This document shows positions 1,240 through 56,067 of a DNA stretch of 64,000 nucleotides, in pieces. This DNA comes from Baekduia soli (lineage in GTDB: Bacteria > Actinomycetota > Thermoleophilia > Solirubrobacterales > Solirubrobacteraceae), in assembly GCF_007970665.1 (NCBI RefSeq), contig NZ_CP042430.1, positions 5,022,001-5,086,000 of the forward strand. Reading direction: 5' to 3'. Position 1 is the first letter of the stretch. Each line of letters begins with the position of its first letter. The notes below the pieces were generated by a model. It was not told the DNA's origin and did not search any database. It saw nothing but the letters and a program-made list of their open reading frames with translations. The position numbers were made by a program, and so were the translations under genes.

Positions 1240-2032
1240 ATGGACCTGGGACTCCGGGGCGCCGTCGTCATCGTGACCGGTGCGAGCAAGGGCATCGGGC
1301 TGGCCGTCGCCGAGGCGTTCGCGGCCGAGGGCGCGCAGGTCGTCGCCGCCGCGCGCACGACCGACGCCCTGGAGGGCATCGCGGGCGTCACGCCGGTGGC
1401 GGTCGATCTCGCCGACGCCGCCGGGCCGCCGGCGCTGATCCGGCGGGCGATGGACGACCACGGCCGGATCGACGTGCTCGTCAACAACGTCGGCGGGGTG
1501 CGGCTGCGGCTGGACGGCTTCCTCGCACTGGGCGACGACGAGTTCCGGTGGGCGTTGGACCTGAACTTCTTCACCACCCTGCGGGCCACGCGCGCGGCCC
1601 TCGTGCCGATGGTCGACCAGGGTCGCGGCGCGGTCGTCAACATCGCCTCGGTCAACGCGTTCTTCCAGCCCGACGGCGCCACCGTGGACTCACTACGGGG
1701 CCGCCAAGGCCGCGGTCGCGAACCTGACCAAGGCGCTGGCGCAGGAGTTCGGCGCCAGCGGCATCCGCGTCAACGCGATCTCGCCCGGCCCGGTCGAGAC
1801 CGACCTGTGGCTCGGCGACCACGGCGTCGCGGCGACCGTCGCCGCCATGAGCGGCGTCGACGCCGACACCGCGCGCGAGCGCGTCATCGCCGGGATCGGC
1901 GGATTCGCCACGGGCCGCTTCACGCGGCCCGACGAGGTCGCCGCGCTGGCGGTCATGCTCGCCTCCGAGCGCATCGGCAACGTCACCGGGGAGAACGTGG
2001 TGATCGACGGCGGGCTGATCAAGACGCTGTGA
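1240..2032 (+). pseudogene. SDR-family oxidoreductase with a frameshift
   Basis: This is a classical short-chain dehydrogenase. It has the glycine-rich cofactor motif TGASKGIG at residues 14-21, the NNVGG motif, the catalytic Ser in NIASVNAF, and then YGAAKAAV with the YxxxK catalytic pair. The frame changes at about 1690. Codons up to GTG-GAC are in one frame, and the catalytic Tyr/Lys, the ISPGPVETD segment and the C-terminus (ending GGLIKTL, stop 2030-2032) are in the next. One extra base, or four relative to a VDYGAAK reading, explains it. If the shift is real, the product loses its catalytic Tyr and Lys. It starts 3 bp after the hydrolase relic, so both probably formed one operon. Confidence 0.85.
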
Positions 2033-47777: not shown

Positions 47778-48750
<973 letters not shown>

Positions 48751-48754
<4 letters not shown>

Positions 48755-50495: not shown

Positions 50496-52562
50496 ATGGG
50501 GCGACGGCGGGTGGCGATTCTGGGTGGGGGCGCAGGCGGCCTGACGGCGGCCTTCGAGCTGACCGCCACGCCCGAGCTGCGCGAGCGCTACGAGGTCACC
50601 GTCCACCAGCTCGGCTGGCGCCTGGGCGGCAAGGGCGCCAGCGGGCGCCGGGAGGTCGGCGCCGCCCGCCCGATCCATGAGCACGGGCTCCATGTCTGGT
50701 TCGGCTTCTACGAGAACGCCTTCGACGTCATGCAGCGCGTCTACGCCGAGCTCGACCGGCCCGTGGGCATGCCGCTGGCGACCTGGCGCGACGCCTTCCA
50801 CCCCGTCGACGAGGTCGTGCTGTTCGACGACACGGGCGACGACGGCTGGCGGCCGCGGCGCTTCCGCTTCCCGCGCAACGACGGGCAGCCGGGCATCCCG
50901 GTGCCCGCGCCGTCGCTGCACGGCCTCCTGCGCGACGCGATCCACACGCTGCGCCTCGTCGAGCCGCCCGAGAACGCGTCGCGCCCGCTCAAGCTGCTCG
51001 ACGCGGTCGTCGACCGCTTCCTGCTCGCGCTCGAGCGCTTCCTGGGCGGCGACGACGACCACCTCGACCTCGGCGACGTCGTGGAGGGCCTGCTGGCCAT
51101 CAGCGACCCGCTCCTGCACCTCGGCGGCGACCAGGACGACGAGCCCGTGGTCTGCCGGCTGCTGCGCGCGCTGCGCGACGCGCTGTGGCGCGTGACGGGC
51201 GGCGACCGCTACGCCATGACGTTCGACCTCGTCTCGACCGTGTTCCGCGGGATCCTGTCCGACGGCCTGGACGACGACGGCTTCGGCACGGTCAACGACG
51301 AGGAGCTGCGCGCCTGGCTGGCCCGCCACGGCGCCAAGCGCGCGACGCTGGACGGCTCGCCCCTGCTGCGCGGCTTCTACCAGCTGTGCTTCGCCTACGA
51401 GGACGGCGACCGCGACCGCCCGTCGCTGGCCGCGGGCAAGGCGCTGCAGGCCATGCTGCGCATGACGCTGGGCTACCGCGGCTCGATCATGTAGAAGATG
51501 CAGGCGGGGATGGGCGACGCCATCTTCGCCCCGCTGTACGAGGTGCTGCGGGCCCGCGGCGTGCGCTTCGAGTTCTTCGACGAGGTCACGGGCCTGCGGC
51601 TCTCCGACGACGGCGACCTCGTCGAGCGCCTGGAGATCCGCCGACAGGTCCAGCTGCGCCACGACGGCGGCTACGACCCGCTGGTCCGTGACCCGGGCGG
51701 CCTGCCGAGCTGGCCGGCCGAGCCCCTGTGGGACCAGCTGCGCGACGGCGAGGACCTCCGCGCCGCGGGGGTGCGCTTCGAGGCCACGGAGGCGGCGCGC
51801 CACGCGGCGGTGCGGACGCTGCGCCGCGGCGAGGACTTCGACGACGTCGTCCTGGCGATCTCCGTGGCGTCGCTGCCGCCGATCTGCACCGAGCTGGCCG
51901 CCCGCCACGGGCGCTTCGCCCGCATGCTCGAGCACGCGCGCACGGTCGCGACCCAGGCCCTGCAGGTGTGGATGACCCGCGACCGCGAGGAGCTGCGCTT
52001 CGCCCCCGCGGGCATGGTCGCCGGTGCCTACGCCGAGCCGCTGGACACGCTGTGCGACATGACGCACCTGCTCGAGCGCGAGGGCTGGGCGCCCGGCGAC
52101 GGCGTCCGCTCGCTGGCCTACCTCTGCGGCACGATGCGCGAGGTGGCGGGCGAGACGCAGGCCCAGGCCGACGCCCGTGCGCTGGCCGACGGCCTCGAGC
52201 ACCTGCGCGCCCGCGCGGCCGTGCACTGGCCCGGGGCGGCCGGTCCCGGCGGCTTCGACTTCTCGGTGCTGGCCGACCCCGAGGACCGCGACGGCGAGGC
52301 ACGCATCGCCGCCCAGTACTGGCGGGCCAACATCTTCGGCAGCGAGCGCTACGTGCTCACGCCGCCGGGGTCGATCCGCCATCGCCTGCGCCCCGACGAG
52401 TCCGGCGTGGCCAACCTGGTCCTCGCCGGCGACTGGACGCGCAACGGCATCTGCGGCGGCAGCGTCGAGGCCGCCGTGACCTCGGGGCGCCTGGCCGCCC
52501 GCGCGCTGTGCGGCAGCCCGGCCTTCGTGCCGGGGACCGAAGGCTGGCTGGAGGCCGACTGA
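50496..52562 (+). pseudogene. FAD-dependent amine-oxidase/phytoene-desaturase-like protein with in-frame amber stop
   Basis: The protein starts RRRVAILGGGAGGLTAAFEL (FAD motif), then QLGWRLGGKGASGRR and HGLHVWFGFYENAF, and ends with NLVLAGDWTRNGICGGSVEA, the C-terminal FAD motif of carotenoid desaturases and hydroxysqualene dehydroxylases. TAG at 51492-51494 interrupts the frame between GYRGSIM and KMQAGMGD. The reading frame continues unchanged for another 356 codons with full family conservation. A Trp fits the position, so TGG to TAG is the simplest change. The product would otherwise be about 688 residues. The gene is followed at once by an acetoacetate-decarboxylase-like gene. Confidence 0.85.
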
Positions 52563-52563
52563 G

Positions 52564-53526
52564 ATGGCCCCGACGCCGCCCTACGTCGAGTTCGGGGGCC
52601 TGGCCTCCGCACCCGGACCGCTGCAGTGCGACGACACGACCCTGTACGTCTTCGCGCTGCAGGCCGACGCCGCCCGCCTCGACACGCTCTGCCGCCGGGT
52701 GTTCGCCGGCCCGACCGGCGGGGCGGTCGACTACCGCCCGCTCGGCGACCACGTCCTCCTGACCTTCGGCGTCGTCGGCGCGATCCGCCCCGTGCTCGAG
52801 CCGTGGCACTCGATGGGCGCCGTGCGCGAGCCCCAGGTGGGCTTCTGGATCCCCGTCGCGCGCGTGCGCGCCGACGACGACGGCGACCTCGTGGGCGAGC
52901 GGTTCGGGATGTTCTGCGCCGCGATGATGCTCGACAACCCCATCTCGCTGCTGTCGGGCCGCGAGGACTACGGCTACCCCAAGACCATGGGGTGGTCGAC
53001 GATGCCCGACGGCGATCTCGCCGACCCGTTCACCCTGGAGGTCTTCGGCATGGACTTCGGCGGCGGCCAGGCGCCCGCGCGCCGGCCGCTCATGGAGCTT
53101 CGCCCGGCCGGCGACGAGCTCGGCGAGGCCGACCTGGCCCTGGGCGACATGCTCGAGGTCGGGCAGTGGATCCGCGACGTGCTGTTCGCGGGCCCGGACC
53201 GCGTCGCGCTCGGGCTGCGCTTCGCGATGGACTTCGCGCAGGACCTGCGCGCCCACCGCGTCGACCAGGTCTTCCTCAAGCAGGTGCGCGCGACCGAGGA
53301 CGGCCGGCGCGCCGACCTGCAGCAGGTCGTCGTCGCCCCGGCCGTCACCCGCAACGTCCGCGCGACCCAGCTGCGCCGGGACTACGACCTGACGCTGCAC
53401 CACCTCGACAGCCACCCGCTGGGCGACGAGCTCGGGCTCACCGACCAGCGCGTGACGCTGGCCGCGCGCCTGGACTTCGACTTCCTCATCGAGGCCGGCA
53501 CCGTGGCCTGGGCTGCGCGGACCTGA
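52564..53526 (+). CDS. acetoacetate decarboxylase-family protein
   Basis: The 320-residue protein has GREDYGYPKTMGWSTMPDGD, matching the family motif GRE-(W/Y)-G-(F/Y)-P-K that carries the Schiff-base lysine region. The upstream FCAAMMLDNPISLLS segment fits too. It begins one base after the preceding flavoprotein stop (TGAGATG), so both were co-translated. True decarboxylase activity is uncertain, since many members act on other keto compounds. The pairing suggests a shared lipid or terpenoid pathway. Confidence 0.82.
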   Translation: MAPTPPYVEFGGLASAPGPLQCDDTTLYVFALQADAARLDTLCRRVFAGPTGGAVDYRPLGDHVLLTFGVVGAIRPVLEPWHSMGAVREPQVGFWIPVARVRADDDGDLVGERFGMFCAAMMLDNPISLLSGREDYGYPKTMGWSTMPDGDLADPFTLEVFGMDFGGGQAPARRPLMELRPAGDELGEADLALGDMLEVGQWIRDVLFAGPDRVALGLRFAMDFAQDLRAHRVDQVFLKQVRATEDGRRADLQQVVVAPAVTRNVRATQLRRDYDLTLHHLDSHPLGDELGLTDQRVTLAARLDFDFLIEAGTVAWAART

Positions 53527-53553: not shown

Positions 53554-56067
53554 ATGCACACGAGCGTGCGCCTGTCGCGCGGCCTTCCCTCCATCACCCG
53601 CTCCTGCCTCGCCGTCGCCCTCGCGGTGGCGGTCGCCGACGCCCTCGCCGGGCGGGCGACGTTGGCGATCGCCGGCGTCGACGGGCTCGCCCCCGTCTGG
53701 CCGCCGGCCGCCATCGCGCTGACGGCGCTGCTGTGGCGCGGGCTCCGGCTGTGGCCCGCGGTCCTGGCCGGCGTGGTGGCCGCCGAGCTGCTCGCGGGCG
53801 CCGGCGTGCTCGCGGGCCTGGGCTGGGGCCTGGCCGACACCGCGCAGGCCGTGCTGACCGTCACGCTGCTGGGCCGGCTGGGCGCCGACGCGCGCTGCCC
53901 GCGCCAGCGCGACGCCGTCCTGCTGCTCGTCTGCACCGCCGCCGCGGCGACCGTGACCGCCCCGCTGGGCTCCGGGATCCTCGCCGCCACCGGCCACGGC
54001 GCCGCCGGCTGGCCACGCTCGGCGGTCGTCTGGGGGCTGGGCGACGTGCTCGGCGTGGTCCTGCTGACCCCCGCGCTGCTGGGCCTGGTCCGTCCGGGCC
54101 GCGGCCCGCGCGCCCAGGCCGCTGCGGCCGAGCGCACCGTCGCGGCCCTCGCGCTCGCCGCCCTCCTGGCCTACGCGGCCACCGACGCCGGGCCCTCGCT
54201 GTGGGTGCCCGTGCCCGTGATGATGTGGATCGCCCTGCGCCAGGGCATCACCGGCGCGGGGCTCGCCGGGCTGGGCAGCGCCCTGGCCGTCTGCTGGGCG
54301 GCCGCCCACGGCATCGGCCGCTACGACGGCAGCGTGCAGGACGTCGCACACGCCCAGCTCGTCATCGGCATGATCGCCGTGCTCATGGCCATGGTGGCCG
54401 CCGCGACCGCCGAGCGCCTGGCGATCGCCGCCGACCTGACCGCGATCGCCGCCGAGGACGGCGCGCTGCGCCGCGTGGCGACGACCGTCGCGGCGGGCGT
54501 CGCGCCGGGTGAGGCGCTCGAGGCCGTAGCCTGCGAGATGGCGCGGCTGCTCGACGTCCACACGGGCGTCGTCGTGCGCTTCGAGGGCGGCCGCGACGCG
54601 CGCGTGCTCGCGCTGTGGTCGCAGACGGAGGCCCCGCAGCCCGGCGTGGGCGAGCTCGTCACCATCGTCCCCGACAGCGCGGTCGACCGCGCCCGCCTCG
54701 GCGAGATCGGCCGCTTCGACGAGCGCGACGCCGAGACCCTCACGCTCCCGCCCTTCCGCCTGCGCATCGCCGCGCCGATCCTCGCCGACGGCCGCCCCTG
54801 GGGCGCGCTCATCGCCTGCTCGGTGGACTCCACCGACCTGCCCGCCGAGATCGGCCAGCGGCTGGCCCGCTTCGCCGAGCTGGCCGGACTGGCCGTGCAG
54901 CTGGCCGCCGAGCGCGACCGCCTCGTCGAGCAGGCCAGCAGCGACCCGCTGACGGGCCTGCTCAACCACCGCGCCTTCCACGAGCGCCTCGTCCAGGAGT
55001 GCGCGCGGGCGCGGCGGGCCGGCCGGCCGCTGTCGCTGGCGATCTTCGACCTCGACCGCTTCAAGCAGGTCAACGACACCCTCGGCCACCTCGCGGGCGA
55101 CGCCGTGCTGGCCGAGGCCGCGCGGCGGATGGCCGACGCGACGCGCGACGGCGAGATCGTCGCGCGCATCGGCGGCGACGAGCTGGCGCTGCTCATGCCC
55201 GACACGGCCAGCCGCGAGGCGCACGCCGCGGGCGAGCGCGTGCGCCGGGCGATCGGCGCCGAGGCGTTCGAGGGCGCCGGCACGCTGACGGTCTCGGCCG
55301 GCGTGTGCGACCTCGAGGAGGCCGCCGACGCCGACGAGCTGCTGCGGCTGGCCGACGGCGCCCTGTACTGGGCCAAGGCCCACGGCCGCGACGCGTGCAT
55401 CCGCTACTCGCCCGAGGTCGTGGAGGAGCTCTCGGCCACCGAGCGCGCCGAGCGCCTCGAGCACGCCCGGGCCCTCGCCGCCCTCGGCGCGCTGGCCAAG
55501 GCCATCGACGCCAAGGACCCGGCGACGATCCGCCACTCCGAGCGCGTCGCCGCGCTCGCCGCCGAGCTGGCGGCGGAGTCGGGATGGGCCCCCGCCGCGG
55601 TGCGCCGCCTCTACGACGCCGCGCTCGTGCACGACGTCGGCAAGATCGGCGTGCCCGACGCGGTCCTCAGCAAGCAGGGGCGCCTGACCGACGGCGAGTA
55701 CGACGTCATCAAGCGCCACGCCGACCTGGGCGCACGCATCGTCGCGGGCGTCCTGGACCCCGACCAGGTCGCGTGGGTGCGGGGCCACCACGAGCGCCAC
55801 GACGGCGGGGGCTACCCCGACGGCCTCGCGGGCGAGGACATCACGGAGGGCGCCCGGCTGCTGGCGCTCGCCGACGCGTGGGACGCGATGACCGGCGCAC
55901 GCATCTACAGCGCGCCGATGCCCGTGCCCGAGGCCATGGAGGAGGTGCGCCGCGGCGACGCCCGCCAGTTCCATCCCGCCGCGGTCGCCGCGCTGGAGCG
56001 CGTGCACGCGCGCGGCGGCCTGGGCGTCGCCGAGGCCGCCGACGAGCCCGTCGGCGTCGCGGCCTGA
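53554..56067 (+). CDS. MASE1-GAF-GGDEF-HD-GYP cyclic-di-GMP signalling protein
   Basis: The 837-residue protein has four parts in order. A MASE1-like membrane sensor occupies residues 10-290 (VWPPAAIALTALLWRGLRLW and several helices). A GAF-like domain follows at 310-450 (VTIVPDSAVDRA, LRIAAPILADGRPWGALI). A GGDEF domain spans about 465-625 (DPLTGLLNHRAF, IFDLDRFKQVND, active site RIGGDELALL, that is GGDEL). The last part is an HD-GYP phosphodiesterase (HSERVAALAAEL, HDVGKIGVPD, HHERHDGGGYPDGLAG). Both synthesis and breakdown of c-di-GMP are possible. A GGDEL signature is usually still active. Confidence 0.93.
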   Translation: MHTSVRLSRGLPSITRSCLAVALAVAVADALAGRATLAIAGVDGLAPVWPPAAIALTALLWRGLRLWPAVLAGVVAAELLAGAGVLAGLGWGLADTAQAVLTVTLLGRLGADARCPRQRDAVLLLVCTAAAATVTAPLGSGILAATGHGAAGWPRSAVVWGLGDVLGVVLLTPALLGLVRPGRGPRAQAAAAERTVAALALAALLAYAATDAGPSLWVPVPVMMWIALRQGITGAGLAGLGSALAVCWAAAHGIGRYDGSVQDVAHAQLVIGMIAVLMAMVAAATAERLAIAADLTAIAAEDGALRRVATTVAAGVAPGEALEAVACEMARLLDVHTGVVVRFEGGRDARVLALWSQTEAPQPGVGELVTIVPDSAVDRARLGEIGRFDERDAETLTLPPFRLRIAAPILADGRPWGALIACSVDSTDLPAEIGQRLARFAELAGLAVQLAAERDRLVEQASSDPLTGLLNHRAFHERLVQECARARRAGRPLSLAIFDLDRFKQVNDTLGHLAGDAVLAEAARRMADATRDGEIVARIGGDELALLMPDTASREAHAAGERVRRAIGAEAFEGAGTLTVSAGVCDLEEAADADELLRLADGALYWAKAHGRDACIRYSPEVVEELSATERAERLEHARALAALGALAKAIDAKDPATIRHSERVAALAAELAAESGWAPAAVRRLYDAALVHDVGKIGVPDAVLSKQGRLTDGEYDVIKRHADLGARIVAGVLDPDQVAWVRGHHERHDGGGYPDGLAGEDITEGARLLALADAWDAMTGARIYSAPMPVPEAMEEVRRGDARQFHPAAVAALERVHARGGLGVAEAADEPVGVAA

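What the first reader, a model, noticed from the sequence alone, without database searches (positions are those of the whole stretch)
50496..52562. In-frame amber codon at a conserved position of a desaturase-like gene
TAG at 51492 is the only defect in an otherwise intact reading frame of about 688 codons, and both sides keep full family motifs. TGG to TAG is a single change. The downstream decarboxylase-like gene is still intact and coupled. Very recent inactivation, read-through, or a base-calling error are the options.
Basis: seen in the sequence. Interest (0 to 1): 0.5.

Follow-up and report, generated by a model that had tools for sequence, protein, structure and literature searches.

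The report
Amber stop interrupts a desaturase-like gene
One gene for a flavin enzyme in an actinobacterium carries a single premature stop codon where its relatives have tryptophan, most likely a recent loss-of-function mutation or possibly a sequencing error, and there is no sign of an altered genetic code.

Summary
Window 50496-52562 (+) reads as a 688-residue enzyme interrupted once, by TAG at codon 333 (51492-51494). In 91 other rows covering that codon, 88 have TGG, 3 TAC and none a stop. The nearest orthologue matches over 45 flanking bases and differs only in that codon.

It is not recoding: RF1 is present, none of 45 tRNAs found has a CUA anticodon, and TAG ends ordinary genes. No relative shares the stop.

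Two readings stay open: a real, recent nonsense mutation (0.60) or a consensus base error (0.33). For error, the genome has about three times the frameshift-like events of two congeners, with the one-base-loss, homopolymer-biased pattern of long reads. Against it, that signature is of indels; substitution errors could not be measured. A functional split or read-through enzyme is unlikely (about 0.06).

The gene is half of a conserved pair, a phytoene-desaturase-fold flavoprotein and an acetoacetate-decarboxylase-fold enzyme, found together in 90 of 101 loci and in one uninterrupted frame in 29 of 87. The partner here is intact. The finding is ordinary; the pair is the more interesting object.

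The parts
50496..52562 (+). Desaturase-like flavoprotein gene (688 codons plus TGA), interrupted once in frame
   Evidence: translation, 9 families (NAD_binding_8, Amino_oxidase, HpnE-like); fold nearest rice phytoene desaturase 5mog
51492..51494 (+). In-frame amber codon TAG (codon 333) where relatives have TGG or TAC
50496..51491 (+). First open half (332 codons): N-terminal dinucleotide-binding part and helical middle part
51498..52562 (+). Second open half; ATG three bases after the TAG, a possible but unproven re-initiation start (354 aa)
   Evidence: ORF 51498..52562; no Shine-Dalgarno-like run seen just upstream
52550..52554 (+). GGAGG, 9 bases before the partner gene's ATG
   Evidence: Read from the sequence
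52564..53526 (+). Intact acetoacetate-decarboxylase-fold partner gene (320 aa)
   Evidence: Pfam ADC 1.8e-6 with 28.1 bits, just under its cut-off of 29.8; model pLDDT 89.0, nearest 3bgt/3c8w; conserved Lys140 aligned

Best explanation
A real, recent nonsense mutation. A single G-to-A type change turned a near-invariant Trp codon into TAG in an accessory flavoenzyme gene. Ribosomes stop at codon 333 and release a 332-residue fragment that holds the N-terminal nucleotide-binding motif but lacks the rest of the flavin domain, so the enzyme is inactive. The decarboxylase-fold partner can still be translated because it has its own GGAGG and ATG. Shown: the stop, the Trp in relatives, the intact partner, no CUA tRNA found, no second copy found. 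Inferred: that the base is real, that the fragment is inactive, that the event is recent, and that the partner is still made.
For: One TAG only, with no frameshift or other stop in 688 codons. Aligned codon TGG in 88 and TAC in 3 of 91 other rows, none a stop; 45 flanking bases identical to G003. GC3 is alike on both sides (0.982 and 0.977) and there are no private indels. The ratio of private changes at codon positions 1+2 to position 3 lies within the congeners' range (window 1.15 and 1.42 for the two halves; four congeners 0.65 to 1.67), so the event, if real, is recent. The gene is accessory: close orthologues in 4 of 6 congeners (G001, G004, G006, and G003 in two contig pieces); G002 has only a 45% relative and G005, 97% complete, only weak matches. 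In the family 24 of 146 genomes, G000 included, have any match, 14 of the 24 weak. One match in the own genome at E <= 0.001. RF1 present; 45 tRNAs above cut-off, none with CUA. TAG closes 33 of 129 long frames (the amber may be one of the 33), and a frame that I recognise as rpsM ends in TAG. Rarity: of 16 strongly coding in-frame stop bridges in 464 kb, 15 are gene junctions by eye and one is this. Of 63 genes tested against relatives this is the only internal nonsense; the other stops listed lie within the first 24 or last 18 query residues. Weak sign of relaxed constraint: 5 of 10 hand-picked private changes at conserved columns fall on the window lineage against a 22% share of branch length (P 0.049).
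Against: The assembly seems error-bearing: 42 frameshift-like events in 704 kb against 11 in 560 kb (G001) and 7 in 400 kb (G006); 33 of 42 shift the frame like a one-base loss and 8 of 42 lie within about 15 bases of a run of 5 or more; two lie in the window. A substitution error cannot be excluded. With outgroup G022 the window gene is not accelerated, so there is no firm decay signal. A second in-frame amber exists at genome position 4,999,711, so ambers are not unique to this gene.
Confidence: 0.6

Rival explanations
1. Consensus base error: the chromosome carries a sense codon and the assembly records TAG, as one of the residual errors of a long-read assembly.
For: G000 shows about three times the frameshift-like rate of two congeners (5.97 against 1.88 per 100 kb, P 1.9e-5); in the 304-kb stretch around the window it is 3.95, about twice. 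The events are biased to one-base loss (33 of 42 against 7 of 18, P 0.006) and to homopolymers (8 of 42 against 3.9% of control positions, P 2e-4). Four of them coincide with breaks in homologue alignments. PMC11649196 (passages) describes homopolymer deletions, G/C runs 1 bp short in PacBio-derived assemblies, and methylation as an error source. PMC12007338 (abstract and section 6) found 69% of detected errors in one nanopore assembly to be indels, mostly false deletions.
Against: The signature is of indels; this is a substitution, and substitution errors could not be measured here. My rough estimate, from the excess indels and a one-third substitution share, is under one error-made stop in 704 kb, where two ambers were found. 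The same paper says substitution errors there are more likely to be G or C (section 6), whereas the base here is A. In whole-genome family scans 0 of 53 listed AMP-binding matches (by my count; 60 in all), 0 of 85 short-chain dehydrogenase matches and 1 of 8 aldo-keto reductase matches have an internal stop. A congener, G002, has an internal TGA in the aldo-keto reductase, so such stops occur without this assembly (G002 is itself a fragmented draft).
Confidence: 0.33
2. Functional despite the stop: low-level read-through by near-cognate tRNAs, or termination and re-initiation at the ATG three bases after the stop, giving two chains that assemble into one enzyme.
For: TAG AAG ATG places a start 3 bases after the stop, at the border between the helical part and a conserved strand-helix segment. 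PMC7918605 (abstract, Results part 1, Discussion part 1) argues that many in-frame stops in bacteria are tolerated for short times. The frame is intact on both sides.
Against: None of the 91 other rows has the stop. No CUA tRNA found. No Shine-Dalgarno-like run seen before the ATG. The cut falls in a short strand (332-335 in the model) and separates two parts of the flavin domain. The hairpin after the stop also folds in orthologue L008, which has a sense codon, though not in L007 (those two stretches were offset by 6 bases).
Confidence: 0.06
3. TAG is reassigned to an amino acid in this genome.
For: Two in-frame ambers in otherwise intact genes (51492 here; 4,999,711 in an aldo-keto reductase).
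Against: TAG closes 33 of 129 long frames, including junctions in clusters I recognise as flagellar and ribosomal. RF1 present. No CUA tRNA among 45.
Confidence: 0.01

Closest known systems
Nonsense-mutation pseudogenes / in-frame stops in bacterial genes (PMC7918605)
   Same: Single in-frame stop in a conserved gene with unchanged flanks: resembles the short-lived, polymorphism-like stops described there
   Different: That study kept stops shared by two or more species; this one is seen in one genome only, and only one genome of the species is held
Gene-fragmenting long-read assembly errors (PMC12007338)
   Same: The genome shows a deletion-biased, homopolymer-biased frameshift pattern
   Different: This lesion is a substitution, the minority class there
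Phytoene desaturase (PDS, 5mog) and HpnE hydroxysqualene dehydroxylase (TIGR03467)
   Same: Same flavoprotein fold and terminal motifs
   Different: HpnE score 56 bits against a cut-off of 283.05; 688 residues against about 430 to 500; 16% identity to 5mog
Acetoacetate decarboxylase superfamily (3bgt, 3c8w)
   Same: Partner gene has the fold and a G-R-E-x-x-G-x-x-K segment
   Different: 320 residues against about 250; 14 to 17% identity; Pfam score just under cut-off

Membership tests
Pseudogene by nonsense mutation | In-frame stop at a position that is a sense codon in orthologues | tested here: met
   88 TGG and 3 TAC of 91 other rows
Pseudogene by nonsense mutation | No intact copy elsewhere in the genome | tested here: met
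   one match in G000 at E <= 0.001
Pseudogene by nonsense mutation | Relaxed selection after the event | tested here: inconclusive
   P 0.049 for private conserved changes; rate tests depend on the outgroup
Pseudogene by nonsense mutation | Base confirmed by reads and product absent | not testable with these tools
   No reads or proteomics available
Amber recoding or suppression | Cognate tRNA with CUA anticodon | tested here: not met
   45 tRNAs above cut-off, none with CUA; two sub-threshold matches gave no tRNA in ARAGORN; tRNAs too odd for RF00005 would be missed
Amber recoding or suppression | RF1 absent or TAG avoided as a terminator | tested here: not met
Programmed read-through | Stop conserved at the position in relatives | tested here: not met
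   no other stop in 91 rows
HpnE hydroxysqualene dehydroxylase | Score above the NCBIfam equivalog cut-off | tested here: not met
   56 bits against 283.05
Phytoene-desaturase-like amine oxidase superfamily | Flavoprotein fold with N-terminal dinucleotide-binding motif and C-terminal flavin motif | tested here: met
Acetoacetate decarboxylase superfamily (partner) | Fold and conserved lysine | tested here: met
   (K140 invariant in 18 of 18 rows; that it is the catalytic lysine is recalled)

The most novel reading that the evidence does not exclude
The gene has become a two-chain enzyme in this lineage: ribosomes stop at TAG and re-initiate at the ATG three bases on, and the halves assemble into one flavoenzyme, a newly born split gene next to a module that elsewhere joins its two enzymes into one chain.
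Probability: 0.04. Interest if true: 0.45.

Novelty: already known. Interest (0 to 1): 0.12.

Why it matters
As a single nonsense allele it matters little beyond annotation: the gene should be flagged as interrupted and the base checked. Two by-products matter more. The genome shows an indel-error-like signature, so other 'pseudogenes' called in it need caution. And the desaturase-fold plus decarboxylase-fold pair is widely conserved, often in one reading frame; three full-text searches with the terms listed there returned no paper on such a pair (they do not cover subscription journals). It is a candidate for a two-step pathway.

Tried and rejected
Genome-wide TAG reassignment: rejected. Stops near the 5' ends of the sigma-factor and ClpP-like genes in the window looked like further lesions but lie upstream of the likely starts. 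Stop-dependent hairpin: not stop-specific, since L008 folds alike while L007 does not; the L007 and L008 stretches were offset by 6 bases. Relative-rate test for decay: contradictory between outgroups G006 and G022, because the tree groups the window with G022; not used as evidence. The frameshift counts come from my own script, uncalibrated on finished genomes; real pseudogenes and atypical genes may be among the events in all three genomes. The counts quoted are for penalty 20. At penalty 16 and 26, G000 gave 6.58 and 2.63 per 100 kb (304-kb stretch) and 8.75 and 5.75 (400-kb sample), G001 2.86 and 1.79, G006 2.75 and 1.0. Junction calls for stop bridges were made by eye; the 16 were sorted, the lists (15, 24 and 21 for G000, G001, G006) only skimmed, so no nonsense rate for the congeners is claimed. 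The 'one uninterrupted frame' count (29 of 87 rows, duplicates and the window's own locus included) means same frame without a stop between the two matches; long single ORFs were seen for L079 and L046.

Full report
What is there. Window 50496-52562 (+) encodes 688 residues and a final TGA, with a single internal stop, TAG at 51492-51494, codon 333. The window is part of a one-contig genome of 5,212,251 bases (G000). Its closest orthologues among named records come from MAGs called Conexibacter sp., so it is an actinobacterium of that neighbourhood. Each half matches parts of one flavoprotein superfamily: NAD_binding_8 before the stop, Amino_oxidase after it, HpnE weakly in both. Read through, the model has mean pLDDT 85.1 and its nearest solved fold is rice phytoene desaturase (5mog, TM-score 0.75 by target length, 16% identity). 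The HpnE equivalog cut-off is not met (56 against 283 bits), so 'desaturase-like' is right and a specific function is not established.

The codon in relatives. In 92 of 116 loci then held an alignment covers codon 333. Apart from the window's own genome, 88 have TGG and 3 have TAC. Four pairs of rows are the same stretch fetched twice, and one of the six patterns contained the Trp, which favours Trp-bearing hits. In five orthologues read directly the codon is TGG, and G003 matches the window over the 21 bases before and 24 after. One transition therefore accounts for the difference. The residue lies in a short strand (332-335) before a helix of the flavin domain.

Is it old or young? There is no other stop, no private indel, and GC3 is alike on both sides (0.982 and 0.977). 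Private changes by codon position fall in the congeners' range. Relative-rate tests contradict each other with the outgroup. The window does carry private changes in conserved columns, including P for R and H for E in the R-I-E-E-H-G motif. Of 10 such changes picked by hand among four genomes, 5 sit on the window lineage against a 22% share of branch length (P 0.049), a weak hint at most. With backgrounds outside the genus the window has 17 departures in 140 columns against 12 to 14 in four congeners. So if the stop is real it is recent.

Recoding excluded. RF1 is encoded. All 45 tRNAs above the RF00005 cut-off were read and none has a CUA anticodon; the only tRNA-Trp has CCA. TAG closes 33 of 129 long coding frames (the amber may be one of them). 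Of 16 strongly coding in-frame stop bridges in 464 kb, 15 are junctions between two genes by eye, and one, the window's, is inside a gene. In a homologue-based scan of 63 genes of a 304-kb stretch this was the only internal nonsense, other stops lying within the first 24 or last 18 query residues. A wider bridge scan, only skimmed, showed a second intragenic amber at genome position 4,999,711, in an aldo-keto reductase at a position that is Q, A or R in relatives; the G002 relative of that gene has an internal TGA. Family scans of the whole genome gave internal stops in 0 of 53 listed AMP-binding matches (60 in all), 0 of 85 short-chain dehydrogenase matches and 1 of 8 aldo-keto reductase matches, the last being that same gene.

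Assembly quality. A frame-tracking script found 42 frameshift-like events in 704 kb of G000 (12 in the 304-kb stretch around the window, 30 in a 400-kb sample), 11 in 560 kb of G001 and 7 in 400 kb of G006. In G000, 33 of 42 shift the frame as loss of one base does (or gain of two), against 7 of 18 in the congeners (P 0.006); 8 of 42 are within about 15 bases of a run of five or more, against 3.9% of control positions (P 2e-4); the rate difference has P 1.9e-5. Homologue alignments independently show four of them. Two are in the window: an aldo-keto reductase near 48586 and a short-chain dehydrogenase near 1689. This resembles the pattern described for long-read assemblies: homopolymer deletions, G/C runs one base short (PMC11649196, passages); 69% indels, mostly false deletions, in one nanopore assembly (PMC12007338, abstract and section 6). 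It raises the chance that the amber is an error, but the amber belongs to the minority substitution class, which I could not measure. My rough estimate from these shares is less than one error-made stop in 704 kb, and in-frame stops are reported to be widespread in bacterial genes (PMC7918605, abstract, Results part 1, Discussion part 1). I put a real mutation at 0.60 and an error at 0.33; these odds are judgement.

What the gene does. It is accessory: 4 of 6 congeners have close orthologues, all four next to the same universal-stress gene, and 24 of 146 family genomes, G000 included, have any match. Its partner, 52564-53526, starts after a 1-base gap and has GGAGG nine bases before its ATG. 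It has the acetoacetate-decarboxylase fold, with the lysine of its G-R-E-x-x-G-x-x-K segment aligned to solved members. The two genes lie in the same locus in 90 of 101 loci (duplicates and weak matches included) and in one frame without a stop between in 29 of 87, as single long ORFs in Shewanella ANA-3 (1041 aa) and Spirulina subsalsa (1076 aa). By inference they act on one substrate, a flavin oxidation next to a Schiff-base type decarboxylation or aldol step. Three full-text searches found no paper naming such a pair.

Mechanism of the lesion (inferred). Translation stops at codon 333; the 332-residue product lacks the second half of the flavin domain; the partner can still be made. Re-initiation at the ATG three bases on is possible but I see no Shine-Dalgarno-like run and no conservation. 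Verdict: observation confirmed, ordinary in kind, unresolved mainly between a true recent mutation and a base error.

Noticed in passing
47778-48754 (+), break near 48586: Aldo-keto reductase with a one-base frameshift relative to G001 and G006 orthologues; fits the one-base-loss pattern.
   Followed up: partly
1279-2017 (+), break near 1689: Short-chain dehydrogenase split over two frames.
   Followed up: partly
G000:C1:4999711, locus L213 17711-17713 (-): Second intragenic amber in this genome, in an aldo-keto reductase, at a position that varies among relatives.
   Followed up: partly
50496-53526 and loci L046, L079, L012: Desaturase-fold and decarboxylase-fold genes form a widely conserved pair, in one frame in 29 of 87 loci, with gene order reversed between lineages.
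   Followed up: partly
53554-56067 (+): MASE1-GAF-GGDEF-HD gene lies after the decarboxylase here, while its G001 and G006 matches (53 to 55% identity) lie on the far side of the aldo-keto reductase and desaturase block: a local rearrangement or a paralogue.
   Followed up: no
G000 compared with congeners: 60 AMP-binding matches in G000 against 14 to 22 in six congeners at E <= 1e-20.
   Followed up: no
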